Origin: Strigamia acuminata
Taxonomy: Eukaryota; Arthropoda; Chilopoda; Geophilomorpha; Linotaeniidae
Assembly (NCBI GenBank): GCA_949358305.1
Contig: OX442315.1
Span: forward strand, 10,564,427-10,628,426
Length of the DNA: 64,000 nt
Direction of reading: 5' to 3'
Positions 7,946 to 63,824 of the stretch are shown piece after piece. The position numbers and the translations under genes were made by a program. The notes beneath the pieces were generated by a model that worked only from the letters and a program-made list of their open reading frames with translations, did not search any database and was not told where the DNA came from. Within the stretch, counting starts at the first letter, position 1. Every line of letters begins with the position of its first letter.

Positions 7946-10827
7946 AGAAGTTCGCCGATTGATTTCATCGATTTTTCGAACTCCTCAATAATCTTGTCTT
8001 TGCTCGTTTTCCTATCAGGACATTCTTTAGCCCAATGTCCTAATTTTTTGCAAATGTTACACGGGTCAGTAGCAGGTGATTTTGCGACTTTTGGCGAAGG
8101 CGAGCTTGAGCGTTTGGCTTCGTCCTTTTTCGGGGTCGGCGACTTCGATCTACTGAGCGCGTCTGTCTTTGGTGAACCAAAAGTAACGTTTTTAGGCGCC
8201 ATCTTTGGTCCAAATTTTCGAGCTACTGCGTTATTACGGGCTAATAAAGCAGCTGCAGCCTCGCTTTCTGGTTCCGAGTCAGATTTCTCTGGTTCAGAAG
8301 CAGCTTCCATATCTGTCACTTCGGCTAAGTGAGCTTTAGGGGTTGGATGTGGATTTTTCCCATCCGATCCCTTTCTAGATTCCTTAGCAGTCTCTGCCAA
8401 AAAATCTCCTCGTTTTGGGGGTTGCAAAAGAGGGGTGTTAGCAAAACGTGTGTCTTTTGCCAACTCCTTTCTCCGTTGCTGTCGCTTAGCGTACGCAACT
8501 TTTTCATCAGCTGGTAGATAAGCTTTATAATTTTCGTCAATCCTTATCTGATTAGCTCGCATAAATTTGGCTAATTCAGCGAAACCACCCGGATAAGGTG
8601 CTCGTACAGAAAGTAGAACATTTTTTGAGTAATCTGTCAATCCACGACGGAATTGACGATCAATGGCTGCGTCTCCCATCGTATACGGGAGAGTGACCAA
8701 TAAATCTTCAGTCCTTCTTAAATAAGAGCGAAGACTTTCGCCTTTATTTTGAGAAAGATTATCCCACATTTGTAATAAGTCTTCACTTGACTCTCCATAC
8801 TCAGTCATGAATTCTTCTACAAAGTGGTTCCAGTTTTGAAATTGTTTAGAATAAAACCATTTCTCAGCTCGATCTATAAGAGCTTTTGGTACTACTCTTT
8901 TCAAAGCAGTGTGACATGCAATGCCATTCAACCTTGAAATTCGTAAAACTTCATCTAAAAGAGTGGATCCAGCTTCCCATTCTCCATCGAATAAAGCGGG
9001 TTTGATGTGATCCCATCTAATAGTTCTTTCATCAACTAGATCGTGAGTCCAGTTGTTGGCAGTATATTGAGCAATTTTCTGTCGTAGTGCAATGTCAGCA
9101 TTATCGGCAGTAGCGTCAGATCGATCGGAAGATCGACGATCAGCTAATAATCGATCAATTTCTTCAGCAGTGTAATAATGTGTATTACGCCGTGAAGAGT
9201 GGCCTCGATGTCGACGTCGATGAGATCGATGTCGATTATCGCGTTCTTGTTGCGCATTCGCATCAGAATCCGACCTTGAATCAGATTGTGAATTCGAAGG
9301 CGTGTTGAAATGTGGCGTTTCAGGTGGGTCGGGTGGGTCGCCGTCATCGTCTGGCGGTCGACGTCCACCTCCAGGTGGTCCATCTCCATGTCCATCTGGA
9401 TTTCCTCCATCTGGTGGATTTCTTCTATACTGACCCCCACCTGGCGGGCTTTCATGTCCGTCGGGTGGTTCGCGTGCTGGATTCATTTCTCGTCGACTTC
9501 TTTTCGACGAATCTTGTTGTTGAGTCAGTGGTATCGTTCGAGCAACGTGAATACCTGTTTCATGCCGCCTATTTCGATCGTCTACCATCCCCAGCAGTCG
9601 GTCACTGTTGTGAAAAATAGGATTTCGATTACCTGGGAGCGGATTGCGATCAGCTCTCCGTTCCTCGGAATCTGAAGGACGTTTTCTTTTTGAGCGATGG
9701 CGGCGACGCGAACGTTGGTCGTCATCACTCGATAATCCAGATTGGCTACTTAACTCTGAAACAACGGAAATTGTTATTGTTTCGGGAGTCAAAATAGGGA
9801 CAGTTGGCGCAGCCATTTCTGGTTGCACCAATTGGTCAGTATAATTCCTTGCTTGCAAACGATCTTTCATTTCTGCAAGCTCTTCTTGAGCGCGCAACAA
9901 ATCAGCTCGGAGAATTTCATTCTCATTTATTTGACTTTGCGATTCTTCTGGTTGTAATCGCTTAGCAGGGTTGCTAGACTTGACTTGTCCGCTCGTACTG
10001 GGTTGATCCAGCGAGTGAAAAATCTCGTCTTCACGCTTAGCTATTTTGCTTTCGCGAGTACGCTGTGTTTTAGCACGTGTGTCTAATTCAGCAGCATATC
10101 TCACTAGTTGATTATGATTGCGTTGGTAGTGGTCTGCCAAATCAATCAATTCTTTATTTTTCTGCTCCAGCTTACTTTTGGTAAGCTCGAGCTGTCTTCG
10201 CGCCTCTTGGTGTGAGCGAATTGAAAGTTCATTTCTAGTGTTCATTTTAGAAAGATCTTCCACTTCACCTTTTAATCGGTATTCTCTAGCTTTTTGGGCT
10301 AGAAATTCCTCATTTTGTCGATTGAGTTCCATATGTTGGAGTTCAACCTCCGCTTTTTGTTGTTGAAGCTCAGCTTCTTTTCGTTCCATTTCAAATTGTA
10401 AATTTGAAACGGCACGATCAGTGTGAAGTCGTATCATGGCGCGATGAATCTCTTCCACCGTCATGTCGTCCGTTATTTGGGCGCCATCTTGGCGTGCTTG
10501 ATTTCTCAAAGCATCCAACATGGTCATGCGAGGAGGTGATTCGTGAGACGATTCACTTTCCATTTCACGTAACGTATTTTCCACTTCCTCCAGTGGAAGT
10601 GGCGGGAGTTCTTGGTCGTTAGAACTCGCACTTGAAGCGCTTAATGCTCTAGCAACTTCATTTTCAGCATCCTTAAGTTGTTTCGGATCTGGAACTGGTG
10701 TTATTTCTTCAGAAATAATTTTCTCTGTAAGCATTTCAGGCTCGAGAGCCGGCAAAACCGTCGCTGCTCGTTTCTGAGTGCTTGGTCGACCTCGCTGTCG
10801 TTTTACAATTTGCATTGGCGTCGCCAT
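7933..10827 (-). CDS. gag: Gag polyprotein (964 aa)
   Basis: Structural protein of the retrotransposon particle. The N-terminus carries QRGRPSTQKR, an AT-hook-like basic GRP motif. A long charged coiled coil follows (about residues 130-290, rich in Glu, Gln, Lys), then Arg-rich and Pro/Gly/Asp-rich low-complexity segments. A capsid-type retrotransposon gag domain comes next (about 620-780, including WFYSKQFQNWNHFVEEF and LRSYLRRTEDLL). Near the C-terminus is one CCHC zinc knuckle, CNICKKLGHWAKEC (C-x2-C-x4-H-x4-C), for nucleic-acid binding. The length is about twice that of many gypsy Gags because of the N-terminal coiled coil. The start is the first ATG after the primer site. The last codons overlap the protease frame. 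Confidence 0.92.
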   Translation of the reverse strand: MATPMQIVKRQRGRPSTQKRAATVLPALEPEMLTEKIISEEITPVPDPKQLKDAENEVARALSASSASSNDQELPPLPLEEVENTLREMESESSHESPPRMTMLDALRNQARQDGAQITDDMTVEEIHRAMIRLHTDRAVSNLQFEMERKEAELQQQKAEVELQHMELNRQNEEFLAQKAREYRLKGEVEDLSKMNTRNELSIRSHQEARRQLELTKSKLEQKNKELIDLADHYQRNHNQLVRYAAELDTRAKTQRTRESKIAKREDEIFHSLDQPSTSGQVKSSNPAKRLQPEESQSQINENEILRADLLRAQEELAEMKDRLQARNYTDQLVQPEMAAPTVPILTPETITISVVSELSSQSGLSSDDDQRSRRRHRSKRKRPSDSEERRADRNPLPGNRNPIFHNSDRLLGMVDDRNRRHETGIHVARTIPLTQQQDSSKRSRREMNPAREPPDGHESPPGGGQYRRNPPDGGNPDGHGDGPPGGGRRPPDDDGDPPDPPETPHFNTPSNSQSDSRSDSDANAQQERDNRHRSHRRRHRGHSSRRNTHYYTAEEIDRLLADRRSSDRSDATADNADIALRQKIAQYTANNWTHDLVDERTIRWDHIKPALFDGEWEAGSTLLDEVLRISRLNGIACHTALKRVVPKALIDRAEKWFYSKQFQNWNHFVEEFMTEYGESSEDLLQMWDNLSQNKGESLRSYLRRTEDLLVTLPYTMGDAAIDRQFRRGLTDYSKNVLLSVRAPYPGGFAELAKFMRANQIRIDENYKAYLPADEKVAYAKRQQRRKELAKDTRFANTPLLQPPKRGDFLAETAKESRKGSDGKNPHPTPKAHLAEVTDMEAASEPEKSDSEPESEAAAALLARNNAVARKFGPKMAPKNVTFGSPKTDALSRSKSPTPKKDEAKRSSSPSPKVAKSPATDPCNICKKLGHWAKECPDRKTSKDKIIEEFEKSMKSIGELLKNL

Positions 10828-10899
10828 TTTGTCAAATTGAAAAAGAACAATGAAAATAAAGGATTTTTTCGCAAAAATCGGGTTTTAACAATCAAAACT

Positions 10900-15774: not shown

Positions 15775-18700
15775 TTAAATGGCTTGATCTCTGGCTTTCT
15801 GCATAAGGCTGGCAATGGCTTGAACCTTCCTTCTGAATGCAGGAGACGTCCATTTGGTGTTCTTATTCACTTTTGGTTCCACGCCAGGTAAATGTTGATC
15901 CCCTTCATCCCAATCATTAGATTCGGCCTGGATCTCCATCTTTTGCACAATTAGCCTAACTAAATTGTGCACACTGTCCAATGAACTTGTCATCTGCTTC
16001 ATTCTATATATTTTGATTAAATTAAATTTAATTAAAAAAAATAATAATTCAACATTTTATTCTACAATTTTTAAACACCAAAACTAACTTTTGTCTTTGT
16101 TTATACATTTCTTCATAGACAAAATCATCTTGTTGACTCACTTCCGAATATTCCATTAGTTTTTCTGATGAATTCGTGTAAACACTTCCAAACCATTTTT
16201 GAACCAATGGCATGAACTGGAATAAATACAAATGATTAATAATTATATTTATAAATGTGCAAAGATAAAAAAAAAAAAACTTACAAAAGATGTAAATTTA
16301 GTATTTTTATCTGTGTTTGGATACTCAATGACCTCAGTTTTGTCAACTCTATCAAGTAAGACCAATGGAAGCTTTCTTTCCAGTTCAGTGTGCAATTCAA
16401 CCTGCATTGCTAATCTCTTCAAATAAGCGTTTCTTCGAATACTTTCAATGTCACCAACAGCTAGACCAATCTGCAGAGCACCAAATACAATTTTCAATAC
16501 AAACAATTCTTAGTTTTTATACGTTTAATGAGCACTTACTAAGAGATTAACCAGTAGAATAGGCATTGAAATCATGAAAAGAAAGAGGAATCCAAAAGAA
16601 AAGTACGGATAAGGTAGACTTGTGCCAACTGATGTGTGATTACTCAAGAAATATGGTTGGACAAATGTTCCCAAAATGTCAAATTCGCCCAACATCATTG
16701 AAAAAACACGAAACAATGAAATCGGAATGTTGGAAAATCCAAGATGATTCCCCTGAAAAAAAAAAACAATCGTTAAAAACTGCCAATTTACAAAAATTTG
16801 TACATTTCTAACCCGTGATAAAAGTATATAAAACGCCAATGCAAAAGCGATGAACAATATGGAGAAGATGAGAAGAGCTTTGATTAGAGTTTTCAGTATT
16901 TCCAGAAACATGACAACATAAATTCCAATTCTGTCAAATCTGGAAACAAAAATGAAATACGGAGTAAAAGTTTTGCGAGAGACGGTCGGTTGCCGCATGG
17001 CCAGGGGAGGACCGTGGGGCGTTTGGACACCATTCACGAGTAAGAACAACACAGAGAACACAGTTTGAATTGATTATATTTTAATTGCGGTTGTCTAGGG
17101 GTTGCGCGTTCACCATGTTATCGCCAAGGTCTCGCGAGCGATTTCCCCTCTTGTTGTGACCGTTATCCTAAGGATTATCCTTATAATGTTGCCAGTGCCA
17201 ACAGATGCCAGTTGGTCACAGTTTTATTAAAGATGTGATTTAAAACAAATCCATGTCTTATTTACCTTTGTAAGTAGAGGAGGAAATTGAACCAAGCCAG
17301 AAACACTGCAACTGCTGAACATGCCAATTCGCTTTGATGCAGCTCTCCACTAAAGACTGGATACACCATGATTGCAGAAGTGATGTAGAGAAACCATTCA
17401 AATAGGTTTATGGGGTTGGTCAAGTATTTCATCTTTTGTTGGTAAAACTGAATCATTTCTTTAATGCTATTTATCATGACAAAAGCCATGATTGTAGTGG
17501 CGATTAAGTAGAATGTAGCTGAAGAGGGCATCTGCAGAGAAGGAAAAATATTTTTCTTTGAGAAAATGCTACTCCAAATTAACACCAGGTTCGTCAATTT
17601 ACGGATTTTGGAAAATTGTCGAATTCTTCGACAACGGGGTTACGGCTTGACAATTTTTTGTAATATAACTTTGGCGAGATGTCGTTCACAACATCCATTA
17701 ATAAAGTAGCAAAAAGTGTTAGAAGTGCCATGAAAACAACATAAAATATAAGGTTTGCCATGTGGAAATGCATTCCATATGCTTTCCTGTTATTAAAGAG
17801 AAAATAAATTATTTCTTGATTATTTTTTTTTTAACATAAAAATAATTTTTTTACCATTTCATTTGTATGTATTTTTGGCAAACTGGATGGCAGAGTAATT
17901 CTAGACGTTTGTATTGAACCATGGTCTGCATATTAATTAAAACATATTAGTTAATTTGTAGTAAAATTTTGTTGTTCGCATAACTTACGTTCATTGCAGG
18001 TAAAGGTGTAGACTTATAATTTTTTAGTTTTGATTCCATCTGCTTGGACATTTGCCTCGAGAACTGAAGAAACTTAAAACTGTATTTAATCTATCAAAAA
18101 AATATCATAAAATAAATCATTCAATAAAAAATGATGTCAAAATGACTGGCAACAACAGGAATGTCATGCAGGAAAGTTTAGGGCAGATGAGCAAAAATTA
18201 TCATTGCTGAAAAACTATTGGAAAATAATTGAAAAACAAAAACAAAACAAAACAACAATTACCAACAGTTTTTAATTCTTTATTTGGCTGCCACTGGGCT
18301 TTCCTGCACTGCCTTACGTGGAAAACCAGACATTTTTAATTAGTGTACAGCAGGAAAGGTTTTTAAAAAGGATGTGGGTAGGGAGATTTAAAATATCGAA
18401 ACAATATTTACAGAATAATCTTCACGGTCTTGATTTATGTCCGATTTAATAATGCAACGATCCAACACTGCCTTTAAAAACAATTACAATTACAAATCTT
18501 CAATATTTTATTTTTATTTTTATTTTTTGTTCTCTACCACATAAACTTCAGGCATCAATGCTATAAGAGCTTGGATCACTCCTTCAGCTTTCTGACAATT
18601 CATTCTCAATATTTCATAACCCCTAAAATTTAAAAAAAAAATTAAAAAAAAAAATTAAAATTATTTATCAATTTATCTAAATACCTGTCTTCATGAGTCG

Positions 18701-28600: not shown

Positions 28601-31600
28601 CGTCACTGCGCTGCATTGTTAGCTTCACTACGCTGCATTGTGTTAGCTTCACTGCGCTGCATTGTGTCAGCATAACCGTATCCTTAACTGCGTCAATAAT
28701 CAATTTTTGTTTCTTTAATTTCTAATTTAATTTAATTTAATTTATTTAATTTAATTTAAATATTTTTCTTTCTATAAAAGATACACACCATTTCATCTCA
28801 ATATATTTCTGACATACTGGATGGCACAATAGCTCCAACCGTCGAAACTGAACCATTTTCTAAAATTAATTAAAATTATGTGGATTAATTTATTTTGTTG
28901 TATTTAACTGTGTAAAGATTTTATAAATCAAAATTAATTTACGTTCATAGCTGGCAACGGTTGAAAATCATACTGCTTATTATCACCTTTCATCTGTTCA
29001 TAAATACTTCTTGTGTATTGTAGGTATTGAAAATCATAACGTATCTACAACAACATCCACCAAAATCATTAAAAGCACCTAAACATTTTCAAAAAATTTC
29101 TTTGAAGACATTTACATAATAACTCCCAGCATCTTCTTTATTGTGTGTCGACTTTTCGATGCATTTGTCTAATACAGCCTGGAAAATAACACAAAAATAA
29201 GTGATAATAATTCATAATTGAGTAATTATTTTCCACTCTAGTGCTCCAAAAAGACTGCTTGTCTAACAAACACCATACACTTGAACAAAAGTATGCATTT
29301 GCTAATAATCTTACCACAAAGACTTCAGGCATGTTGGATATTAGATTTTGAATAATTTCTTCACACCGTGTTGAATTCATCTCTAACATTTCCTTCGCTC
29401 TGAAAATAAGAAATTTTCATTTCTCTTCTACACCAAATGTATTTTCTTACCTGGTATCATGAGTAGCCATTGCCATGGCAACTTCATGATGCTTATAATG
29501 CAATGCAAGATCCATGGGTGTAAATCCTGCTTCATTCTTGATGATGGTACATTCACCATTCAACAACAAACCAATGGCATTAGCTTTGTTGTGGATTGCA
29601 GCTAAATGCAGCGGTGTATTCTAAAATAAAATAAAAAAAGTGAATAAAATAAAAAATATTTTTTCACAAAAAATCAGAAAACACATTTACCCCATTCTTG
29701 TCGACTTGGTTGACCATCTGTGCATGCACACCCAACAGTGCGGCCATAGTCTTCACATATCCATTTTCAGCAGAGAGATGAAGTGGTGTCGAGCCTTTGA
29801 AATCTCGTTCCAATAATGCTCCTTTATTGAGCAACAATTGCACAATACGGGTATGGCCATTTTGGGCAGCAATGTGTAATGGTGTCAAGCCTTCGCCATC
29901 AGTTTCATTGATGATGTACGAACCGCGCTCGCCTGACAATAATTCGACAACGGTGTTGTAGCGACCATATCTGCAAAAATAAAGCATAAATAAAAAGTTT
30001 GTTGTTGTTTAAATTTGAATTTATGTCGATGTCCAATTATGAATTGACAGCATTTATTTTTGCGGTTATAAAACAACCACTTCATAATTAATTTTCTCCT
30101 GCTCTTATTATTCTACCGTGTAGCAAAGTGAAGCGGGGATTCATTATCATTGTTTTTTGTTGTGATACACGCGCCAAGTTTGATTAATGATTCGGTACTA
30201 CGGATTCTGCCACCTCGAGTAGCAAAATGAAGTGGCGTACATCCGTGAATATCCTGTTCATTTAGAAGCTGATGTAACTCTTGTTTGTCAATCTAAAAAA
30301 ACAATAACAACAACAGTAACAACAACCACAAATTAAAGGTCAAGTGCACTGAGTGGGTTTTATTTTTTTTCAGATAGAGCCTAATGAAAAATTATTTTTC
30401 ATGTTAAAAAAAAATAAAATTTGGGCCTTTATCATTGTTTAATAACAATCGCAATATCGGGTGTTGACAAGGCAAAGAATCATGGGAGTATGACGTTGTC
30501 AGTTCTCTAGTTCAGTTGACCTGGAACTAGTTCCGAGCCTAGGGTGGATTCATAATGGCTGACCTTGATTGCGGGAGTTTAAAACTGTCTTTTGCGCATG
30601 CGCAGTTTGATGCGCATGCGCAACAACACCTCCACCAACCACCACAGAACTGATGACGTCGGACATCCAGCCAACAACCATGATGCATCACATTGAAAAA
30701 GTCAACTTTTTCAATTGTTATTAAACAGTGATAAAGGCCCAAATTTTATTTTTTTTTCACATGAAAAATATTTTTATATTAGGCTATATCAGAAAAAAAA
30801 TAAAACCCACTCAGTGCACTTGACCTTTAAATAAATAAATAAATAAAAACCCACATACTTTACTCAATTCTTCTGAAAAGTCTTCCAACGACCCACCATG
30901 CGTGACAATGAGATGTAAGAGGTTTCGATTCTCTTTGTCTCTGATACGCACATCAGCTCCGAGGCGAATTAGGAGCTGAACGGTTGACCAACCTGCTCTT
31001 GAAGCCGCCAATAGGAGAGAAGTACGACCTTCGTTATCCTTCAAATCAATGTCAGCACCCTGCGGAAGACAAAAAGTGCGTGGCAGTCTAGAAAGAAGCT
31101 CTAAGTATCAGTAAATCAAAAGTAAATCACCTCTTGAATCAAATAAGTCACTAGTTCATGATGGTTATAGCTTGCTGCACAGTGTAATGGCGTCATTCCT
31201 TGCAAGTCTCTCATGAGCATTACTTTGTCTTTTTCTTCCGGTTGCCAGACAAACATTAGACGAAGTATTTCATAAGTACCTTGGGCACAGGCCAAGTGTA
31301 CTGGTGTAACTTTACTATGCTCTTGTGTGGTGATTTTTGCTCCATTTTGCAAGCACATTTTCACTGTCTGTTTGAAAATAGAGGAAATAAAATAGAGAAA
31401 AGTCTAATACAGAGGTCTTTCTATCAAATAGCTCTTCAATAAGGAAGGATATTTAAGTTGCAATTATGTTTTCACACCCAATCTATGCCAGAACTCTTGA
31501 TTTATTGACCTGATTGAGACATTTTGAACTGAAAACATCAAAGTGATGAAGTCATTTCCCACCTGCATTTTTTTGTCAATGCTAATATTTTCTTCATTCC

Positions 31601-38400: not shown

Positions 38401-41400
38401 AATAAATTAACTTAATATTATTTTCTTATTTTTACATTCAGTGCTGGTAAAGGTGGCGGTTTAAAAGTTTTATCCTGAGATTTAAATTCCTGAATATATT
38501 GTTGGGTCAATTGCAAATGCTTGAAACTGTATTTCACCTAGAAAATAATGTTAAAAATATGAAATAAATTTGTAATAAATTTAAATTTTAACAAATAATA
38601 CAAAGTAAGTTTTTGATTCTCTCTTTTCAGCAGATCTAGTGATGCTTTTATCCAGAACAGACTAATTTTGTGCAGCAAAAAAAACAAACAATTAATTAAA
38701 CCCTTCAATTCAAGTTTATTCTCATTTTTCTCACCATGAATACTTCTGGCATTTGTGATATCAGAGCTTGAGGTAAATTTGTAAACACTTTGGAACAATT
38801 ATTAAATATCTCTTCTGACCTAATCCAGAAATTAAAACAATAATAAATTCCATATTTCATTTTTTAATAATTCAATTAAGCCTATTAATATTTTACCTTC
38901 CATCATGAGTTGCTAAAGCCAAGCACGATTCTTGGTATTTAGATAAAATGACAATATCCATCGGAGACTGGCCGGCTTTATTTGTTAGCAGTTTCCCTTC
39001 CAAATTCAAAATGTACGTGATTGCCCCTGCTTTGTTTGCAATGGCTGCCAAATGCAAAGCTGTATTCTATACATAAATTATACCAAAAAATGTCCATTAA
39101 TTTTTAAAATATAATTTTTAAAGAATAAAAAACTACACCCAACTTACTCCATCTTTGTCCATTTGATCTAGCAAATGTGAATGAATACATATCAACATAT
39201 CCATAGTTTCAATGTAGCCATTTTGTGCTGCTAAATGAAAAGGAGTTCTTCCATCGTGATCCCTTCAAAAAAAAGAAATATTATATAATAACTAATTTAA
39301 AAAATCAATATTTGTTTTTACCTATGCAATAATGCACCTCTAGCAAGCAATAACTGCACAACTCTGGTGTGACCATTTAAAGATGCTATATGGAGCGCTG
39401 TTTGTCCCTCGCCGTTTGATTCATTTATAATGAATGGCCCTTTATCAGTCTGCAATAACTGTCGAACTGTATTGTACCTTCCAAATCTTTTAACAAAACC
39501 CAAAAAAAATATTGTTAAAACTCCTGTGGTTCCTAAAAAATAATGCTGTTTGTTGTGTTGCAAGAAAGACTTGCTGTGAAGACAGTGACAGAAACAGAAG
39601 AAACAAATATCTCTTAAACAGTGAACTTAATAACCTAGCAGCAAAATGCAGTGGAGACTGGTGGTCATTATCTTTCATATTAATTGTAGCTCCCAATTTA
39701 ATGAGTGAATCGATGCTTCGAAAATAACCGTTCTTTGACGCTAAGTGCATCGGTGTACAGCCGGTCGTGTCTTTTTCATTTAGTCGATCAGCTACAGGAA
39801 TGTGAAACTAAAAAAATAAGAAAAATATAATACAATCTGCAGGTTTGTTGTACCATGAACCAAGAATAACAAGGACGACTATCCGTGGTTTATTTCCTAT
39901 TTATTCGTTGTTCTGCGCGCTGATTGGATGACATTGGACTTATTTTATATGAAAATAGACTTTATTTATTAAAAGAGTTGGAAATTAGACCACTATCAAA
40001 TATCCGTGTTATCCTTGGTTCATGGTTGTACATTTGTGTGTGCTGTACAGGGCTAACGCGAGGGGAAAGGCGGTGAAGTGACACAATTCAAGGGGCAGCA
40101 TTTTTCTTGTTAAAGGCTAGTTATGACGCGCCGGCCCTGTTTGTGCACATACTTACGTGTTGCATCAAAAGAGCAAATTCTTCCAAACTACCTCCTTGAA
40201 GAACAATGAAATGAAACACATTCCTGTTATTCATATCTCGAGTTTCGGTGTTGGCCCCAATGTTAAGCAAAGTACGAACAGTTTTCCAGCCGCCGCGAGA
40301 AGCAGCCAACAGTAGAGGAGTTCTGTGTTCTTTGTCCGATGGGTCAATTTTAGCACCCTGCCAAAACAAAACACAAATCAAATCATAAATAAGTGAAAAG
40401 GATCTAGATCCGTGAACAGAGATCAGTGTTCACACCGATCATGGATCTATATCTGCAGCTTCGGATGAGATCCAAAACCTTGGTGTAAACAAGGTATCAC
40501 CCAACCATTGGGAGTTTTTCACAAGCTTTTGCAAGGATTATTTTTCTAATTAGATTTTTCTACCTCGGCTACAAGGTAGTCGACAATATCCACATGATCA
40601 AACATTGCAGCACAATGCAGTGGTGTCATCTTTTGCACGTCAGCGGTGGTAAGTGCTTCCATCTTATCTTCAGGTTGTAAAGTGAACATGAGTTTAACTA
40701 TTTCTAATGATCCTTGTGCACAAGCTAAGTGCACTGGAGTGGATAAGTTGTTTTGTTGAGTGCTGATGCGAGCGCCATTCTCCAAACAAAGTTTCACTGC
40801 CTAAGAATTCAAATCAATAAAAATTTGCCATCAATATGGTTGAATACTAATTTACCTTTACGTCTCCTCCATTGACAGCTGAATGTAATGGATCATTGCC
40901 TTCGAGGTCTTTACAAAGCATCAGTGAAGTTCGGTCATATCCGATTGATTCACCTTCAAAATTGCAATATTAATTTTGTTTGTTGTATGAAAAATATTGC
41001 AGACATGCCTTTTCTTAGCATTACGTCCATAGTCTTTGCAGATGCATTTTTAGCAGCTTCATGAATCGGGTAAAAACCATTGTTGCATGGTTGACGCGGA
41101 CAACATTTCAGCTCTGACAACTACCAAGTGAATCAAGTACATCAGAATAACAGACATGTCATCTACTGAGAACTTACGAGCACGTCAGCAACTTCAGGAA
41201 AGTCATATATAGCGGCTAAATGAAGAGCTGTTCGTCCATGTTGCCCTCCTTGCATCACATCTAATTTCTTAGCATGTTGTACCAATTGCTTGAAAAATAA
41301 ATAAAACAAACTTAATAATAGAGAGTTTGCGAGATGCTTTTTTCCCTTATTTTTCTCTACGTTACACTATTTTAGTGCCATATCGTAAGGGAAAAATCTT

Positions 41401-44868: not shown

Positions 44869-46991
44869 GATTACTATTATTTTTATATTTAAAGTCAAAA
44901 TTATTATTTTTTGGTTGCGAAATAGTGTGATCACTTGATTTCAGTATTTCATCCCCTGTAATTGAGTTGCTATCTGAATGCAACACTAATTTGCAATTCA
45001 TAAACACCCAATCATTAAATGCGCAGTTTGATTTAATTTGTTAGATTAGAGTGCTATTAAACTCATTTTTGTAACTACACGACTTTCTTGAAATTATGAA
45101 ACTATAATTATGCATTTAAATTGAGCAGCAAACTTTGGTTTAATTGGCTCTAAAGTAACTGATGCAAGCTCTGTTGGTAATTCAATCTGACTTCCCTGCA
45201 CGTGAGATAAGAATAAGCGGCTGCTGCAATTGGCGTGGTCAGCAAAAGTTACAATAAAATATAAAATGAAGATTTTGAAGATGATCTCTGGAATGGAAAC
45301 AGGAAACTGTAGAGTTGACCCACGGTTGTGTTATTGTAGACTACTGTTATCGTAAAGCTAGATCTTTTTTATCTCTATCTGACTTAATAGCAACAGTTTG
45401 ATGTTCATTTTCACCTCAAAAATTTATTAATAACATAAAAGTTTCCTTTTGTAGATAAAAAGTCCATTTTTGCAGATAAAAAATTGTTGTACATAAAATG
45501 TCCATTTTTATACATAAAAAGTTCACTTTTGTACATAAAAAGTTCACTTTTGTACATAAAAAGTTCACTTTTGTACATAAAAAGTTCACTTTTGTACATA
45601 AAAAGTTCACTTTTGTACATAAAAAGTTCACTTTTGTACATAAAAAGTTCACTTTTGTACATAAAAAGTTCACTTTTGTATTTAAAAAGTTTACTTTTGT
45701 ACATAAAAAGTTCACTTTTGTATTTAAAAAGTTTACTTTTGAACTTAAAAGTTTACTTTTGAACTTAAAAGTTTACTTTTGAACTTAAAAGTTTACTTTT
45801 GAACTTAAAAGTTTACTTTTGAACTTAAAAGTTTACTTTTGAACTTAAAAGTTTACTTTTGAACTTAAAAGTTTACTTTTGAACTTAAAAGTTTACTTTT
45901 GAACTTAAAAGTTTACTTTTGAACTTAAAAGTTTACTTTTGAACTTAAAAGTTTACTTTTGAACTTAAAAGTTTACTTTTGAACTTAAAAGTTTACTTTT
46001 GAACTTAAAAGTTTACTTTTGAACTTAAAAGTTTACTTTTGAACTTAAAAGTTTACTTTTGAACTTAAAAGTTTACTTTTGAACTTAAAAGTGTATTTTT
46101 GCATATAAAAAGTGTACTTTTGCACATAAAAAGTGTATTTTTGCACTACAAAAAGTGTACCTTTGCACATAAAAAGTGCACTTTTAAACCTAAAAAATGC
46201 ACTTTTGCACATAAAAAGTGTACTTTTGCACATAAAAAGTGCACTTTTAAACCTAAAAAATGCACTTTTGCACATAAAAAGTGTACTTTTGCACATAAAA
46301 AGTGCACTTTTAAACCTAAAAAGTGTACTTTTGAACATAAAAAATGCACTTTTGCACCTAAAAAGTGTACTTGTGAAGTAATCAGTAGTTCACTTTTACT
46401 CAAAAAATTACTTTCTCTAAACAACAAACTTACCTTTTATACCAACAAACTTTTATAACTAAAAAACAAAACCCAACCTAATAAAACCCCAGCCGGTTAC
46501 TGTTAAACAAACATCTTGCCTTTTTCTCTGCTCTTCACTGGAGAAAAACTACCAACACAATCACATTCCTAATCCTCCCTCTTATCAATTACGAAGTACT
46601 TCTTTTAACAATACCCTTAAATCTAATTATAAAGCTTAAAACCAACAACAATTTCATCTAAAAAAAAAATAAAAAATAAAAAATAAAAAAAATCACACTC
46701 AACATTATTAACCATTAAAAACAAATCGATGTACGTGACAAACACCAAAATCCAACCTCATTAAAATACCTTAAAAATCCTGTACGGACTTTCCTTCATC
46801 GTACAAATTGCGCCATCAATTTGCGTGTTGGCGTCCGGGTTCGTCTTCGAGTCACCATTCAGCCCTTCCGTTTCGTCTGCATCGTCTCCATCCAAAGGAA
46901 TTACGACCACTCGATCCCTGTTACGTCGTCTGCCATCTGCACCATGTTGCCATGTCTTGACCATTCGAAAAAAGCCCCACGGATCTGCCAT
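35465..46991 (-). CDS. TRPA: TRPA-family cation channel, paralog 3 (about 1188 aa, 24 exons)
   Basis: Complete gene. Exons: 46770-46991 (or alternative 44126-44251), 41970-42126, 41726-41901, 41178-41288, 41009-41120, 40856-40953, 40564-40800, 40157-40357, 39635-39807, 39322-39486, 39148-39262, 38897-39066, 38735-38819, 38602-38661, 38436-38537, 38280-38350, 38076-38211, 37735-38000, 37254-37380, 36937-37188, 36798-36866, 35964-36074, 35766-35890, 35465-35690. Lengths sum to whole codons with either first exon. Ankyrin repeats are followed by six helices, pore SMMLGEID (Glu 951) and a longer pore-to-S6 loop than its neighbours. S6 is MPILLMNLL-IGLAVGDIESVRR, then MQ-VELHTELERKLP. It differs by VLDKS and HPVTQQ, where paralogs 1 and 2 have VLDRC/VLDKC and HPVCQK. 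The intron at 41008 has a GC donor. The N-terminus is charged and low in complexity. Confidence 0.93.
37505..37697. repeat. Minisatellite, 22-bp unit TTTTGTCTCAATTTTTCAAA plus AA
   Basis: About nine nearly identical units in the intron between the S4 exon (37735-38000) and S5 exon (37254-37380) of TRPA paralog 3. Confidence 0.85.
43181..43570. mobile_element. Foldback/MITE-like element with CTCAAAAAGGCCCCCAAAT ends
   Basis: 34-bp imperfect inverted ends (CTCAAAAAGGCCCCCAAAT at 43181; complement ending 43570), 390 bp in total, AT-rich interior and no ORF. It lies in the first intron of TRPA paralog 3. A target duplication could not be assigned. Confidence 0.6.
43845..43950. repeat. Minisatellite, 20-21 bp unit AAACAATAAAACCAATTTTC
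   Basis: About five units, with A/G and C/A variants, upstream of the alternative first exon of TRPA paralog 3. Confidence 0.75.
44126..44251 (-). CDS. Candidate alternative first exon of TRPA paralog 3 (42 codons)
   Basis: Encodes MTSSLLRQLWPSRATKG and ends with an acidic run (SDNDDDDD) and LRAIVV at a strong donor, GTA|GTAAGT. It is phase 0, so it joins the next exon (VAELGNLKEF) in frame exactly as 46770-46991 does. Drosophila TrpA1 is known to use alternative first exons with different sensitivities, so an isoform pair is plausible. No transcript evidence is available. Confidence 0.5.
44585..44872. repeat. TTTTTAGGTGTTT-type repeat followed by an (ATT)n microsatellite
   Basis: Short TTTTTAGGTATTTTTAGAT words (44585-44790) run into about 25 ATT units (44795-44870, with a few GTT and ATG interruptions). 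It is intronic or in the promoter area of TRPA paralog 3. Confidence 0.8.
45425..46380. repeat. Large palindromic minisatellite, 20-21 bp units in three blocks
   Basis: Block 1 (45425-45735): AAAAAGTTCACTTTTGTACA plus T. Block 2 (45735-46090): AACTTAAAAGTTTACTTTTG, 18 or more nearly identical units. Block 3 (46090-46375): CACATAAAAAGTGTACTTTT plus G, with AAAAGTGCACTTTT variants. All share AAAAGT-NN-ACTTTT, an inverted repeat. It lies in the intron after the distal first exon of TRPA paralog 3. The open frames across it are a by-product of unit length. Confidence 0.92.
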
Positions 46992-52679: not shown

Positions 52680-55600
52680 ATGACTGGAGTTAGACACGTC
52701 AAGTATGTGCGAAAACTGAAAGAAATGATCTTGGAATGTATAGAAATGCACTTTGAAGTTCCTCAATTTCTCCCTCCATTTCCACAAATCCGCAAGAACA
52801 AATTTCGTCATTTTTATTCTGTGATTTGGTATTTCATCATCGCATTAATCGTGTCAGTGTGGTTCTACCACTCATTTGACCGGATCAAATACTACGCTTC
52901 ATCACCGGTCAAAGTTGCTGCCATTATCAACGAAGGCGACGACTTTCCAGGAATATCCATCGGTATTTTTAGTTTTAGTACTATGGAAAGTGCCTTAGTG
53001 CATCAATCAATAACAGATGAATCTCCCGAAGGTAAATAACTTTTTTTTTTAATAGTCTACAACGAAGTGATACCTTAAAAATTATCTTTTTTAAACAGCA
53101 AGTCTGTGCAGCACCGTTCCATTTTTTTTTATAGATGAAAAAAGAAAGATCAGTTCAGTGTGGCGTTACAAAAGAATTAAGCCTTTAATAAGAAATATAA
53201 CTATATCTTACGACAAGGTAAACCTATAATAATCTCTAATCCAATGTGAACTAGTATGTTAAATCATTCATTGCAGGGGTCTAAAAGTATGTGTGACTAT
53301 ATTCAGAGCAATGTAGTTGCCGATGAAATGGACATTCTACTAGGAAGTGAAATGGTTATAACAACCGGTAAGTATTACAAAATATTTAACAAGCTGTAAA
53401 ACAAAAAACACCATAATAATTTTCCTAAAATTTTTTATTACTTAATTGGCAGAGGGAAAAATACCAGTTGATTGCCAAGCAAAAATTATCATTAAGTATA
53501 ACACATTTAATCGTAGTTTAATTACAAGTGCAACTGAACGTGCAATTTTAGGATATGTAATGGTAAGACAATTATCATAATAAGGCAGAATTTTATTTCC
53601 CCCTTTCATCTAAGAAGAAATTAGGCATTAGGATTTAAATATGGTAACAAACAATGAATTAAAATTCTGCTATCAGATGAAGAATGACCCAAATTAAGCT
53701 TAGATTTTGTATTCACTCATTCTGTTGCCACATGATAACAGGTCAACTTAAAAGAAGAGAATAAAAAACATAAATTTGTTGGAACTGCTATGGTGCGCTC
53801 CTCATCTGTTTTGAAGCATTCTGAATTATTATTCACAATTAAGAGAGTAAATTACTTCAGATTTTTGAACGTTGTAACCAGATGGATAAGATAAAACAAG
53901 GTAATTTGTGGTTACAGTACAAATTTCAAAACAGAAGAAGTTTTCCTTGTGTGGAAGAACGTGAAGAGCTAAAATGCCATCACACATGTCTCGAAGAAAG
54001 AATATCAACTGATGTGAAGCCTTTCTGCAAGTAATTATACAAGCTTATAACCACATCTAAATAAGCAAAGCCCTGAAGTTGTGTGCAGTGTTTGGTGTTT
54101 GGTTTTAGTGACTTTCCTGCATGGCATTGCTGCTATTGGAATGATTTGTCTTATTTGTTTGCAGGTGTTCTTTAGTTTACAATTTACAATTGCGAAAAAT
54201 TGTTAGTTTGCCAACCGCAATATAAGTGTGTAAGCCTGCGCAAAAGTAAAATTAAATTTTTCTGAAAATTATGAGCATAATAAACATGATTTAATGTAAC
54301 TTTCCGACTCCATATTACCATGTGTGGCCAATAATTCCTCAGATCCAATTCCTTCAATGCTAGAAGCCCCTTTCCCTTGCTGCACTGTATAATTCAGAGG
54401 CTTAGATTTGCAAACACTCTTTGCGAAAGGGACAACATTGTCAAGCATACTTTTATATTACCAGCGGATATAATAATATAATATAATATAATATAATATA
54501 ACATAATATAATCCTTTCAGATTGCCCTTTATGCCTGATTCAGATCTTAAAGAGTGCATGGCAAGCAACCAGACCTGCACGACTATGACAGAAATTCAAG
54601 AAAGAGTGAAACTTATCAATCCGCATTACAATTGTAGTTGTGAGAGAGCATGCAACAAAATTATGATAATTGCTCATCAACATTTCGATAATGTCATCGA
54701 TAACACTTTGACCATTTCTTCATTCAGCGACAAAAGACTCACTTTGTTCGAAGAATTTTGTTACGACATCATCGCTCTACTGTGTGACATCGGAGGCTTT
54801 ATGGGCTTGTACGTAGGAACCTCATGTTTGAGTTTAGTCGAAATCATCACTCGCAGAGCCCAAAAACAGTACAAAAAGACAGTCATGTCCCAGAAATGGA
54901 AAAATGTTCACGAAAAAAAAATTTTTCAAACAATTCATGAAATTGTAGTCACACAAAATGAATCCACAATGTCTAATGTTTTAAACACTTATTCAAACCG
55001 GCCTTTAATGTGGATCAAAGCATTGATTGTGTTCTCATGCATTTGTGTCTGCTTTTACCAGGTCAGCAGTCGAATAATGTCATTTTACTCGTTTCCTGTC
55101 TACACCATAATTGAAGTAGTGGAAGATGAACATGTTCAAATCCCAACAGTACTTATTTGCAATGAGGATGATGCAGTGATTGACGAAAAAGAAAAATTAA
55201 TAAAAACCAACGGTATGGAAGAAAAGTGTGTTGAGAAATTGAGCATTGCCGAATTACTCGACCCACCATCGGAATTTACTGGCGATGCAAATGGTTTGTG
55301 GGAAGCCTCGTCTAACCTCGGCAGTTTTTTGCCCTTTGTACGTTTTTTCATAAACAATATAAAGTTTTGAGTTTTGAAGAGGTGAAGAGATATAACTTTT
55401 AGTAAAATTTATGTTTTAATGCAGAGTGCTGTCGCCCTGGATTCTTCATTTGTAAACAAAGACGAAGGAACTAAAGCTACTGTTTCGACCATATTTGGAC
55501 AATGCACTAAAATAAAATATGGTAAAATGATTAAATTGGTTAATTCTATTTGTATAGTAAAGTAATACAATGTCGCCATAGATGTCGTGCAATACAATAT

Positions 55601-56012
55601 AGCAACTGGGTATGTTTTCATCTTGCAATATATTCAAAATAGAGGTTGCAATTCATTTTCTAAAGTAGGTCCATTATTCAAGATTGTTCAGATTAGAATC
55701 AGTTTTAAAACAAAAACTTCCTTTATTTTAAGGCCATTGTGTATAAAAAGAGTTTAAAAAATGGTGTTTAATTAGTTTTATCTGCATATTCTGGCACCCC
55801 GTCGACTACCCTGCGAACAATTTCGTTGCCCCAAAGATTAGAAATGGCCAAATGTTCGTATGAGCCCCACCCTGGTACCATATATCAAATGTTCCACAAC
55901 TCTGGTTGTGAAAAAATTCCATGACCGCTCCTGTGAGGGAATACGGGATTAATTATAATAATTAATATGGTTATCAATATTGTTAGTCATTAGTTTGATA
56001 TTTGTAGTTATG

Positions 56013-56045
<33 letters not shown>

Positions 56046-59000
56046 TATTTGTTTATTTATTATTTATAATTATTATGGTTATTATTATTATTATTTATAA
56101 TTATTATGGTTATTATTATTATTATTATTATTTATTTATTTATTATTTATTATTATTATTATTATTAGTTTATGTTTACGTTTGACTCAAGTTCAAGTTT
56201 GAGCTTGACTCAAATTTTAGTCTTAGCTTTGTTTGGCTTTCAAATGTAAAAGTGTGACTGTTATGGTCTTCTCCGTGGCTGTCTTGGGACTGGATACCAT
56301 GGGTGGGTCGTACCCTCACGTAAATGATAGAGCCGGGGACTCCAGATTGTTGGTTGTTGGCCTTTAATCCGTTGTCTAGGGATCGGAAACTCCCATCACC
56401 CGTGTTGGCGGTGCCGGGAAGGCACGCCACACCATCAACCGACCTGTCATGCACAGGGATGAATCCCCATGGATGACTAGTTGGTTAACATAACATTCTG
56501 CTGTACTCATCTACAGCCCACGCAGCCGCTATGGAGGCTGTAGCAGGCCCATCGTCCTGCTACTGAGTGTCGCAGTGGTGAATGGAGAGGAGAGCGGTGT
56601 CAGCACAGGGCATGACTGCATGACTGCCCTTGCTGGCTTCAGGACATTCCTTGCACATGACTGTCTCATTTAAGACCCAGCGCTCTTACCTCTGTCATGG
56701 TTGGTGACAGACTCTCTTCTCCCCCACCACTCAGCTCCCTCCTTCCCTATACTGGGTCAGTTTACCCCACAAGGGGGAATGACCTTAAGGTCAGTGAGCA
56801 GCGTGTGGAGTGACGCAGGTGACCGTGGGTGGCCAAGCGGTCACAAAAGTAATTTAGAATATCAGCTCTGAAAAGATGTGGATTTTACTTGTAAACACTC
56901 AACAGCTCCCACACAAAACACCTGCCCAGTGCCCATACGGTGCCAGAATGTATAAAAAAGTTGTTTTCCATTGAGTTTGATGAAAATTGGTAAATTACTG
57001 ATTGAAAACAATTCATTAGGCAATTCATTACATTATTATGTGGAATAAATATTCTGATACCATCTGGACAAAGTTGTGCAAACTGTTACAAGAATGCTTC
57101 TTTGTTGTTAAGTATTGTTAAGTATTGATATTAATATTAATATAGACTTTCTTAATGGCAACAGAGGATCGAATGGATTTTACTACTTATATGATTCATC
57201 CGCATAATTCATGGATGCACGTCACTTTCACAAGACAATCTGTAAGTTTCACTTGTTAAGTCAAATACGACTTCTATTACCATAAACCAGGGTTACTTTG
57301 ATCCAATTTTGTTAAATTTTATTATAATTTGAAAACTAATTATGAGAATTTCTCCATATTTTGATACAAAGTACAACTACATTTCAAAAGTTTAGAAAGT
57401 GAGTGAAAAATTCATTCACTTTGTGAATAACACCAAAAATATGACTTAAAAGTTAAGCAAAACCAATTTATACCATCAGATTTGAATAAAACAATTATTT
57501 TTCATCTAAAATAGCTTATAGTTACATATATTTAGTTATATAGTTTAGTTACAAATCGAGATTTTCAAAACCTCACTTGTGTCAAAAGTTTAGAAAGTTG
57601 AAAAAATCATTTCATAAGTTTAGAAAGTGCAACATAATTCCTTTATTTCGACTTGAAAATAGGACATTTTCATTTTTTTGTTTAGTATTTTGTTGGATGA
57701 TCTCTGCATCGTATGACCGCTTTCAATCTGCGAGGCATTGTAGACAATACAGTAGGGGGCAAAACAATTGCGACATGTTGAATATCATGGCTGTATCTCG
57801 ATAAATAAAGGAGGAAAATCAATGAAATTTTAAGTGAATATTAGTCCAACATTCTGCTTTTATGACAATCTATCCATTAGTTCTAGAGAAAAAAATTATT
57901 TTATGAAGTGACTGCTCTGAAAAAATAGTTCAGTGTTGATTTGGGAATGCGAAAGGTTGGAAATCTCCAATCCATTGAAGAAATAATGAATACTAATGAT
58001 TACAGAGACAATTTAGAAAGAAATCTTGAGGAATAAAAAAACATTGGCGTTGGTTGTATCAACAGGATAACAACCAAAAACATACATCAAAATTTGCGTG
58101 TGAATATTTCACACCAAAAAAAATCAGACATCTTCAATGGCTTTCTCAGTTATTTGAAACTTAATCCAATTGAACAGTTATGAGATGATTTCTTGATTTA
58201 AACCAAAAACTTTCTCTAAAGTTGAGAAAAAAATGTTCCAAAGTTGAAATTAGCTTTGCTTGATGTTTGGGTGTAAAGTGTGTCTAAAACAGTGCTACTA
58301 AAATTGCTTGGAAGTCTGGCTGAATAATTGAAAGCAATAGTAAGCTAAAAGATGGCCAACAAAGCATTAACAGACATTGTTGTAAGGTTTCTCGATGGTT
58401 AACAGAGTTTGTTAACTTACCTTTGCCTCTTAAATTTTGATGTCACTTCATAAAATAATTTTTTTCTCTAGAACTAATGGATAGATTGTCATAAAATTTT
58501 AGGTGAACAAAGCAGAATGTTGGACAAATATTCAGTTAAAATTTCATTGGTTTTCCTCCTTTATTTATCGAGATACAGCCATGAGATTCAACATGTCGCA
58601 ATTGTTTTGCCCCCTGCTGTATTGTCTACAATGCCTCGCAGATTGAAGGCGGTCATACGATGCAGAGATCATCCAACAAAATACTAAACAAAAAAATGAA
58701 AACATCCTATTTTCAAGTCGAAATAAAGGAATTATATTGCACTTTCTAAACTTATGAAATGATTTTTTCAACTTTCTAAACTTTTGACACAAGTGAGGTT
58801 TTGAAAATCTCGATTTGTAACTAAATTATATAACTAAATATATGTACCTATAAGCTATTTTAGATGAAAAATAATTGTTTTATTCAAATCTGATGGTATA
58901 AATTGGTTTTGCTTAACTTTTAAGTCATATTTTTGGTGTTATTCACAAAGTGAGTGAATTTTTCACTCACTTTCTAAACTTTTGAAATGTAGTTGTAGGT

Positions 59001-60026
59001 AAGTATGTATTGATTCTGATTCCGTTATTAAAAAAAATCTGGACTCATAATGGTGTGGACAATCTCACCTCTGCAAGGTGATGAGTTTGGCCGGTTATCA
59101 AAAATTGCCGAAAAAACATAGAAAACCTCATAAGGTTAGTTTTACATTTTTTAGCTTGAACAACTAGATATACATGTATATAAAAAATATGAAAAAAAGC
59201 ATGCTTTAATGCTCATCTCCATATTTTTTCCATCCTGTACTGTAACAACCAAGAGTTTTTTCATAGTCAGACACTACTTCATTTTTTAATTTTTGGCCAA
59301 AGTCACCCCGGTTTACAATACTTCTATAATATTGATAAAACATGACAGTGATCCTGGTTAGGCATTGCTTCCTTAAAGTTCCTGATTTTAGTTATTTCCA
59401 CGCATCATTTAAGATCAATAATGTGCATCAACAAAAGATATTAATTGTAGGAAATACTAACATTATTACCGTATATTTAATTACCAGTTTTCTCGGTTGA
59501 AAACACCAACAAAACCTTGTGTAGACATGGAAGAATTTACAAAATGTGAGGACGACTGTCTTATGGAAAACAGACAAAACATTTCATGCAGGTTTAACGA
59601 AATAAATTTGTGTTTTTGCGTTGTTCTCATTTTTTTATCACCCTCAGCTTACCATTCATTACCAACTCGTCGTTGCCTTCTTGCGCCAATTCCACCTCGG
59701 CTAACCGAGTTATCAAATCTTACCTGAAGGATGTTTTGAAAACCAAATGTCGGTGTCATCCTCCGTGTCAACACACCTTCTACATTCCCCAATTGGAATA
59801 TAACCAGGTATCCCCCGCAGCCATTGAGCGATCTGTTCTATTGTCGCATTTTGAATTAGAAAGTAATTTCCGAGAAGTGTTCAAAGAAGAACTAGTTATA
59901 CCATTTGAAAAACTTGTTTGCGATATCGGATCTATTCTCGGATTCTTTCTGGGATTATCATTTTTTTCACTTTTGAATCAAATATCCGACATTTCCTCTT
60001 TTCTCAACAATTTCTTTAAAACCTAA
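52680..60026 (+). CDS. Concatenated two-subunit DEG/ENaC sodium channel (about 787 aa, 11 exons)
   Basis: Exons: 52680-53031, 53135-53217, 53277-53367, 53453-53562, 53742-53846, 53918-54030, 54521-55337, 55425-55538, 57146-57241, 59488-59591, 59648-60026. Phases agree throughout and lengths sum to whole codons. Unit 1: TM1 (FYSVIWYFIIALIVSVWFY, about 42-62), FPGISI after TM1, cysteine-bearing ectodomain, TM2 with CDIGGFMGLYVGTS (GTS at 384-386, the G-x-S selectivity motif). Unit 2: TM1 (WIKALIVFSCICVCFY, about 449-464), IPTVLICN (the FPAVTIC counterpart), ectodomain with KCRCHPPC, TM2 with CDIGSILGFFLGLS (about 753-766). TM2 of unit 1 and TM1 of unit 2 lie in one uninterrupted exon. Both ectodomains are shorter than the usual family length. 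The end of exon 8 is less certain (alternative donor at 55521). Confidence 0.87.
55539..57145. other. DEG/ENaC intron with (ATT)n repeat and a GC-rich foreign-looking block
   Basis: ATT/ATTT microsatellite at about 56010-56167, followed by a ~600-bp block (56262-56865) of clearly higher GC with unique-looking sequence and several short inverted segments. No intact ORF or recognisable RNA gene is present. Remnant of a non-LTR element is one possibility. Confidence 0.5.
57372..58997. mobile_element. Degenerate Tc1/mariner element with very long inverted repeats
   Basis: TA-flanked ends CTACATTTCAAAAGTTTAGA and its complement. The inverted repeats run about 530-540 bp on each side (57372-57910 and 58440-58997). 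The centre, read on the plus strand, keeps a broken transposase tail: QQDNNQKHTSKFACEYF and LNPIEQL, with stops and frame breaks. These match the Tc1 catalytic region (QxDNxPxH and NPIE). It lies in the DEG/ENaC intron between exons 57146-57241 and 59488-59591. Confidence 0.88.

Positions 60027-61205: not shown

Positions 61206-63824
<2,619 letters not shown>

What the first reader, a model, noticed from the sequence alone, without database searches (positions are those of the whole stretch)
52680..60026. Two complete DEG/ENaC subunits encoded in one reading frame
Seen: exon 54521-55337 has no stop between the TM2 of a first unit (DIGGFMGLYVGTS) and the TM1 of a second unit (WIKALIVFSCICVCFY), and the later exons supply a second ectodomain and a second TM2 (DIGSILGFFLGLS). 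The frame is phase-consistent from the ATG at 52680 to the stop at 60026 (788 codons). Known: DEG/ENaC channels are trimers of two-helix subunits. Inference: a natural concatemer with four membrane helices would raise a stoichiometry problem for a trimer (1.5 copies, or one copy plus a partner, or only one unit used). Both units are also compact. I know of no described fused member.
Basis: partly seen in the sequence, partly recalled or inferred. Interest (0 to 1): 0.88.

Follow-up and report, generated by a model that had tools for sequence, protein, structure and literature searches.

The report
Giant family of two-in-one sodium channels
In a soil centipede, two subunits of a sodium-channel family that normally assembles from three separate proteins are encoded as one chain, and the joint recurs at more than 400 places in its genome, which makes the rule for building this three-part channel directly testable.

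Summary
The window (Strigamia acuminata, a geophilomorph centipede) fits a 12-exon gene model of 809 aa: two complete DEG/ENaC subunits joined inside one uninterrupted 817-base exon. A match spanning the same TM2-linker-TM1 joint occurs at 422 or more loci; 408 show no stop. All 23 copies whose DNA I read are open across the joint. In 28 loci of conventional DEG/ENaC genes from the same genome no exon spans it. The linker evolves under purifying selection (dN/dS 0.38), and trees fit one old fusion that was then amplified. An assembly error or lone pseudogene is excluded. Seven searches of open papers found no described fused DEG/ENaC. How two-subunit chains fill a trimer is unsolved; I favour one fused chain plus one conventional partner (about 45%). 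A sensory role is inferred from copy number and clustering. No transcript, protein or structure evidence was available, and most loci are known by this one exon only.

The parts
52680..53031 (+). exon 1: start codon, unit 1 N-terminus, TM1 (FYSVIWYFIIALIVSVWFY), start of ectodomain; phase out 1
   Evidence: hydropathy peak at residues 45-63; in-frame TAA three codons upstream of the ATG
53135..53217 (+). exon 2 (unit 1 ectodomain), phase 1 to 0
53277..53367 (+). exon 3 (unit 1), phase 0 to 1
   Evidence: same phases as exon 8
53453..53562 (+). exon 4 (unit 1), phase 1 to 0
   Evidence: same phases as exon 9
53742..53846 (+). exon 5 (unit 1), phase 0 to 0; absent from my first model
   Evidence: inside a block conserved in L049; GT-AG; same phases as exon 10
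53918..54030 (+). exon 6 (unit 1, Cys-rich), phase 0 to 2
   Evidence: same phases as exon 11
54521..55337 (+). exon 7, the fusion exon: end of unit 1 ectodomain, TM2 with G-x-S tract, linker, unit 2 TM1 and first part of its ectodomain; no stop
   Evidence: a match spanning TM2 to TM1 at 422 loci
54852..55004 (+). linker between unit 1 TM2 and unit 2 TM1 (residues 396-446 of 809), basic-rich
   Evidence: residue landmarks; dN/dS 0.38, bootstrap 0.22-0.61, over 11 copies
55425..55521 (+). exon 8 (unit 2 ectodomain), phase 0 to 1
55582..55664 (+). exon 9 (unit 2), phase 1 to 0; absent from my first model
   Evidence: conserved in L049
57146..57241 (+). exon 10 (unit 2), phase 0 to 0
   Evidence: acceptor conserved in L049
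59488..59591 (+). exon 11 (unit 2, Cys-rich), phase 0 to 2
59648..60026 (+). exon 12: end of unit 2 ectodomain, TM2 (DIGSILGFFLGLS) and stop codon
   Evidence: copies at 72-80% identity

Best explanation
The locus is one gene encoding a natural tandem dimer of DEG/ENaC subunits (in, TM1, ectodomain 1, TM2, cytosolic linker, TM1', ectodomain 2, TM2', in). It arose from one old fusion of two tandem subunit genes that removed the stop of the first and the 5' end of the second, leaving one exon where two gene ends had been, and was then amplified to more than 400 loci in this centipede lineage. SHOWN from sequence: the open joint, two complete units, shared intron phases, the number of loci with the joint, purifying selection across the joint, and separate grouping of the fused halves. 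INFERRED: the mRNA is made and translated as one chain; both units fold; the linker is cytosolic; each chain supplies two neighbouring subunits of a trimer and a conventional subunit supplies the third (about 45%; alternatives below); the products are cation channels used as variable sensory (chemo-) receptors (about 50%). The confidence given is for the core claim: a real, single-polypeptide, amplified fusion family.
For: Gene model: 12 exons, all introns GT-AG, 809 aa, phases 1-0-1-0-0-2 in unit 1 and 0-1-0-0-2 in unit 2. Two full units by match to solved subunits. A second gene, L049, has the same exon series in order. Family: 422 distinct loci with a match spanning TM2 to TM1, 408 without a stop (all rows except 20 partial ones); all 150 scored rows (of 1065 candidates) span the joint without a stop. 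Control: in the same HMM scan none of 71 distinct conventional exons (38 with TM2; 33 with TM1; loci L001-L028) spans both halves, while every fused locus does. L059 and L060, not used to build the HMM, match across the joint (E 6.5e-27 and 3.1e-24 in a search of two sequences). Selection: linker dN/dS 0.38 over 11 copies, 0 of 2000 bootstraps at 1 or more; window against seven paralogues: linker 0.25-0.61, unit 1 0.31-0.52, unit 2 0.32-0.47. Trees: 22 fused unit-2 N-halves on one side of a branch, 95/85; 20 fused unit-1 TM2 exons likewise, 91/18. Loci in arrays, the largest 39 in 0.6 Mb. In Strigamia maritima 'sodium transport' is enriched among lineage-specific duplicates (passage of PMC4244043).
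Against: No RNA, protein or structure data. Whole-gene architecture was followed from exon 1 to 12 only in the window and L049; most loci are known by the fusion exon alone and some may be fragments. 14 of 422 loci carry a stop, further partial rows are broken copies, and L039, one of the 11 cluster copies, changes frame just after unit 2 TM1. Some loci are near-identical or on unplaced contigs and could be assembly duplicates. The second support value for the unit-1 group is weak (18), and long branches are flagged in the trees. dN/dS pairs are not independent and gene conversion may bias them. The glycine motif before TM1 that conventional members carry is missing from the fused linkers, so normal pore geometry is not assured. 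An in-frame Met occurs in 18 of 21 linkers, so internal starts cannot be excluded for most members.
Confidence: 0.88

Rival explanations
1. Three fused chains assemble as six subunits: unit 1s form one trimeric pore and unit 2s another, giving a bridged double-barrelled channel or a dimer of trimers.
For: Both units have a full ectodomain, TM1, and TM2 with a G-x-S tract, and both are under similar constraint, so both may line pores. No outside partner is needed.
Against: A linker of about 50 residues must bridge two separate trimers; nothing in the sequence favours this over 2+1. Not testable here.
Confidence: 0.25
2. Only one unit per chain enters the pore; the other hangs outside as a regulatory or ligand-binding module.
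For: Unit 1 is more divergent from Pfam ASC than unit 2 (E 3.1e-6 against 4.7e-19). Engineered concatemers can be used incompletely (general knowledge).
Against: Pore-lining features persist in both units and both are constrained.
Confidence: 0.15
3. The chain is cut, or unit 2 is also made alone from an internal start or promoter, so that ordinary two-helix subunits assemble and the fusion only co-expresses a pair.
For: An in-frame Met occurs in 18 of 21 linkers read. A fly DEG/ENaC gene is described as co-transcribed in an operon-like way (start of abstract of PMC2827562 in the listing).
Against: The linkers of L036, L052 and L054 have no Met in the stretch tested, and the Met position is not conserved. 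None of the 23 unit-1 ends read has its own stop. Selection keeps the linker coding.
Confidence: 0.12
4. Assembly error, hidden stop or pseudogene in a single copy.
For: None found for the window gene; some other members do carry stops (14 of 422).
Against: The joint recurs at hundreds of loci down to 19% identity to the window exon among the copies read; linker dN/dS is well below 1; the published assembly is HiFi with QV 59.6 (passage of PMC10556566).
Confidence: 0.01

Closest known systems
PDPNaC1 (PDB 9jf7), Scolopendra subspinipes mutilans
   Same: Centipede DEG/ENaC; unit 1 aligns over nearly its whole length, residues 46-396 to 39-394
   Different: One subunit per chain; reported as a homotrimer and antennal proton-gated channel (abstract of PMC12714832)
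BRTNaC1, broad-range thermal receptor 1 (PDB 8ymr, 8ymw, 8ymx), same Scolopendra species (passage of PMC12714832)
   Same: Unit 2 aligns to 57-407 in one stretch, E 1e-19 with 8ymw
   Different: One subunit per chain
Engineered ASIC concatemers (ASIC2a/3, passages of PMC10329638)
   Same: Subunits joined in one chain through designed linkers to study stoichiometry
   Different: Man-made, three subunits, 19-residue linkers; here natural, two subunits, linker of about 50 residues
Expanded arthropod DEG/ENaC sets (31 fly ppk members, start of abstract of PMC12304301; mite ENaCs discussed in passages of PMC7738191)
   Same: Lineage-specific expansion and proposed sensory use
   Different: To my knowledge single-subunit proteins (recalled, not tested here); the fly set is far smaller than the 422 loci here
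Natural pseudo-oligomers in other channel families (K2P, Nav/Cav; recalled, no call)
   Same: Subunits fused during evolution, fewer chains per pore
   Different: There the number of fused units divides the pore symmetry; two units per chain do not divide three

Membership tests
DEG/ENaC (Pfam ASC, PF00858) | Profile match over the curated cut-off | tested here: met
   Whole 809 aa 83.9 bits; unit 1 alone 26.9 and unit 2 alone 69.2; cut-off 23.6. In the whole-protein scan only one stretch, in unit 2, passes on its own
DEG/ENaC (Pfam ASC, PF00858) | TM1, large Cys-rich ectodomain, TM2 | tested here: met
   Met twice in one chain: alignments to solved subunits and repeated Cys spacing. Unit 1 TM2 gives no hydropathy peak above 1.6; it is placed by homology
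DEG/ENaC (Pfam ASC, PF00858) | G-x-S selectivity tract in TM2 | tested here: met
   Unit 1: 21 of 21 fused loci match a motif that contains it; unit 2: G-L-S in 8 of 8 last exons. Meaning of the motif recalled
DEG/ENaC (Pfam ASC, PF00858) | Glycine (HG-type) motif before TM1: usual, not strictly defining | tested here: not met
   Pattern xG-phi-x-[KRQN]-phi in 31 of 33 conventional TM1 exons; in 2 of 21 fused linkers, both at the start of TM1, and 0 of 2 further ones. Pattern written after looking at the sequences
DEG/ENaC (Pfam ASC, PF00858) | One two-helix subunit per polypeptide: usual architecture | tested here: not met
   Two subunits in the predicted polypeptide: this is what makes it a variant
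DEG/ENaC (Pfam ASC, PF00858) | Trimeric assembly | not testable with these tools
   needs biochemistry or multimer modelling
DEG/ENaC (Pfam ASC, PF00858) | Amiloride-sensitive Na+ conductance | not testable with these tools
   needs expression and recording
Chemoreceptor family | Large clustered family with broken copies | tested here: met
   422 loci, 70 clusters of two or more at gaps under 60 kb, 14 with stops
Chemoreceptor family | Expression in chemosensory neurons and response to ligands | not testable with these tools
   no expression data

The most novel reading that the evidence does not exclude
A centipede lineage evolved a new class of receptor channel: hundreds of natural two-subunit DEG/ENaC chains that work as variable sensory receptors. 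Each is completed to a trimer by one or a few shared single-chain partners, or assembles as bridged double trimers, and together they form one of the largest receptor repertoires of the animal.
Probability: 0.45. Interest if true: 0.95.

Novelty: new variant of a known kind. Interest (0 to 1): 0.9.

Why it matters
DEG/ENaC channels are trimers, so a chain with two subunits does not divide evenly into the pore. If the joint is kept and amplified hundreds of times, the arithmetic must be solved somehow: an obligate partner, a double pore or partial use. Each answer is testable and would be new. Fused pairs with fixed neighbours also offer a ready-made tool for ENaC/ASIC stoichiometry. If the family is sensory, it exceeds by several-fold the 77 GRs and 54 IRs reported for the sister species Strigamia maritima (passages of PMC4244043) and would change what is thought to mediate smell and taste in these centipedes.

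Tried and rejected
Rejected: a single-copy artefact (hundreds of loci); compact ectodomains (my first model lacked exons too); a '670-aa single frame' at C3:10.30 Mb, which I took from a column and withdrew after reading L035. Chains of three or more units are not supported: the window gene ends in a stop, and no two neighbouring fusion exons of the 422 lie closer than 4.5 kb; not excluded elsewhere. The 5.8-billion protein search scored nothing at E 0.001 or better, so other species could not be compared. Rfam and tRNA scans of the window were empty. The fusion exon could not be folded (alignment A2, queue full). I did not submit the spliced 809-aa protein for folding, because I read the stated rule as admitting only contiguous translations.

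Counting rules: rows not spanning TM2 to TM1 of the query were dropped: 8 of 143, 0 of 150, 0 of 150, 0 of 143, 4 of 146, 8 of 144. Overlapping rows were merged (complete recount gave the same 422, 408 and 14). Rows dropped before trees: one TM2 row of L019 and one of L058 as atypical; L039 and one L018 row as too short and six duplicates. The first TM1-side tree (21 fused rows, 98/83) had lost the window row to my duplicate filter; one search repeats it with the window.
Full report
WHERE. G000 has 237,517,015 bases in 157 contigs; the window is C3:10564427-10628426. Contig lengths 66,985,994 (C1) and 9,836,499 (C11) equal the longest scaffold and the N90 of the Strigamia acuminata assembly qcStrAcum1.1 (passages of PMC10556566). 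The paper's assembly has one scaffold and 17 kb more, and its 19,347,077-base N50 scaffold is 3.8 kb longer than C4, so the held version may differ slightly. The animal is a geophilomorph centipede.

OBSERVATION. The + strand holds an open stretch 54507-55370 with an acceptor before 54521 and a donor after 55337. My first splice model had ten exons and 740 aa. Comparison with a paralogue at C3:10.30 Mb (L049) showed conserved blocks that it did not use. Adding them gives 12 exons, every intron GT-AG, 2430 nt, 809 aa, one stop at the end.

TWO WHOLE UNITS. Unit 1 aligns from residue 46 to 396 with PDPNaC1 39-394 (9jf7, E 6.9e-12). Unit 2, given with most of the linker, aligns from query residue 41 to 388 with BRTNaC1 57-407 (8ymw, E 1e-19; the best entry, 8ymx, in two stretches). 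Both solved channels are from one Scolopendra species (abstract and passage of PMC12714832). Pfam ASC: 83.9 bits for the whole, 26.9 and 69.2 for the halves, cut-off 23.6; unit 1 is the more divergent. The last five introns of unit 1 and the five of unit 2 have phases 0-1-0-0-2. The Cys series 258-267-271-284-297-(304)-323-325-329 is repeated, without the bracketed one, as 660-669-673-683-696-718-720-724. The plain reading is a tandem duplicate, with the end of the first copy and the start of the second now in one exon.

A GIANT FAMILY. Searching the genome with the fused protein returned the fusion exon itself at many other places: eleven rows at 60-98% identity on C3:10.3-10.6 Mb including the window, and many at 30-40% elsewhere. 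Queries from more distant members kept finding new ones. The union of all rows that span TM2 to TM1 is 422 distinct loci, 408 without a stop: C6 143, C1 135, C3 59, C8 39, others 46. Each of these searches scored only 143-150 of 1065-1536 candidates, so this is a lower bound for matching exons; some loci are near-identical or on unplaced contigs and might be assembly duplicates. At gaps under 60 kb they form 70 clusters of two or more, the largest 39 loci in C6:3.72-4.33 Mb, and 104 singletons. I read the DNA of 23 distinct fused loci; in all 23 the frame is open across the joint (21; L059 and L060). One of them, L039, changes frame just after unit 2 TM1. Within the 1.5-kb flanks, unit-1 exons before and unit-2 exons after the fusion exon lie in order on one strand in L030, L031, L034, L035, L036 and L037. 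Divergent L044 and L051 also show an exon before and stretches after; in L050 only the exon before is seen, weakly (E 0.018).

CONTROL. L001-L028 were taken from the best Pfam ASC matches of the same genome, mostly from tight arrays, not at random. An HMM of TM2-linker-TM1 made from 11 fused sequences finds their TM2 and TM1 exons separately: 38 distinct TM2 rows and 33 distinct TM1 rows, none spanning both. Fused and ordinary genes coexist, and tandem neighbours do not look fused by default. Some other rows (for example C8:11122379) are fused loci.

SELECTION. Over 11 copies of the window's own cluster (L029-L039, L029 being the window), pooled pairwise dN/dS is 0.46 (end of ectodomain 1), 0.24 (TM2), 0.38 (linker; bootstrap 0.22-0.61; 0 of 2000 at 1 or above), 0.49 (TM1) and 0.38 (start of ectodomain 2). 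Window against seven paralogues, on the codons that could be matched: unit 1 0.31-0.52, linker 0.25-0.61, unit 2 0.32-0.47. Pairs are not independent and conversion may act, but the linker evolves as protein.

ONE FUSION. In a tree of 56 TM1-side sequences the 22 fused unit-2 halves, the window among them, lie on one side of a branch (95/85). In a tree of 65 TM2 exons the 20 fused unit-1 ones do so at 91/18, in 90% of bootstrap trees, and the eight unit-2 last exons, all from the window's cluster, at 100/100. The single unit-1 N-half included joins a conventional sequence of L019 on long branches. Long branches are flagged in both trees and the second support value for unit 1 is poor. The data fit a single fusion followed by amplification but do not prove it.

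A STRUCTURAL ODDITY. 31 of 33 conventional TM1 exons carry a glycine motif (such as IIGVDKI or LFGLNKF) shortly before TM1, the place of the HG motif of ASIC/ENaC (recalled). Fused linkers lack it: the only 2 matches among 21 lie at the start of TM1, and L059 and L060 have none. The pattern was written after looking at the sequences. The inner mouth of the pore may be built differently.

MECHANISM. Shown: one uninterrupted coding exon, two whole units, constraint on both and on the linker. Inferred: one polypeptide with four helices and a cytosolic basic linker (50 residues in the window and 45-50 in the other cluster copies by the boundaries; 51 if TM1 is started one residue later). For the trimer problem I rank a fused chain plus one conventional subunit first (about 0.45), then three chains giving two bridged pores (0.25), then one unit unused (0.15), and cleavage or separate starts last (0.12). 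The 2+1 scheme needs no new pore geometry and possible partners exist in the genome, as co-receptors do for insect receptor families (general knowledge). Internal starts are a poor explanation: three of 21 linkers have no Met in the stretch tested (L036, L052, L054), the Met is not at a fixed place, and no unit-1 end read has a stop.

FUNCTION. Copy number, arrays and broken copies point to sensory, perhaps chemosensory, receptors; this is inference. In the sister species S. maritima the genome paper reports 77 GR and 54 IR genes, no OR, no opsins, and 'sodium transport' among functions enriched in lineage-specific duplicates; the words ENaC, sodium channel and amiloride do not occur in its main text (passages of PMC4244043; supplements not read). 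That enrichment may be this family, seen but not described.

LITERATURE. Seven searches (open-licence PubMed Central papers only, read as listings) showed no described fused DEG/ENaC. A DEG/ENaC review describes two helices per subunit and trimers; words beginning with fused or fusion do not occur in it (passages of PMC10148893).

LIMITS. No transcripts, no other myriapod genome, no structure model. Most loci are known by one exon.

Noticed in passing
window 57372-57860 and 58509-58997: 489-base inverted repeat, arms 98% complementary with 648 bases between, inside intron 10 of the fused gene; looks like a foldback or MITE-type element (name recalled).
   Followed up: partly
window 3464-10884, minus strand: LTR-retrotransposon-like frames: gag with zinc knuckle (7933-10884) and reverse transcriptase, RNase H and integrase (3464-6577); described only.
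   Followed up: partly
window 16525-41914, minus strand: One frame with an Ion_trans match (16525-17073) and frames with ankyrin repeats (29664-30008, 39490-39807), possibly one TRPA-type channel gene (recalled).
   Followed up: partly
window 61206-61505, minus strand: Ferlin C-terminus (PF16165, E 7.8e-13), convergent neighbour of the fused channel gene.
   Followed up: partly
window 45411-46458: Tandem repeat giving long open frames of repeated peptides (such as KSELFMY) on both strands.
   Followed up: no
L001-L028 (C1, C3, C4, C5, C6, C9, C11): The same genome also has tandem arrays of conventional single-subunit DEG/ENaC genes, possible partners of the fused chains.
   Followed up: partly
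window 56364-56645 and L049: A repeat about 71% identical lies in different introns of the two paralogues.
   Followed up: no
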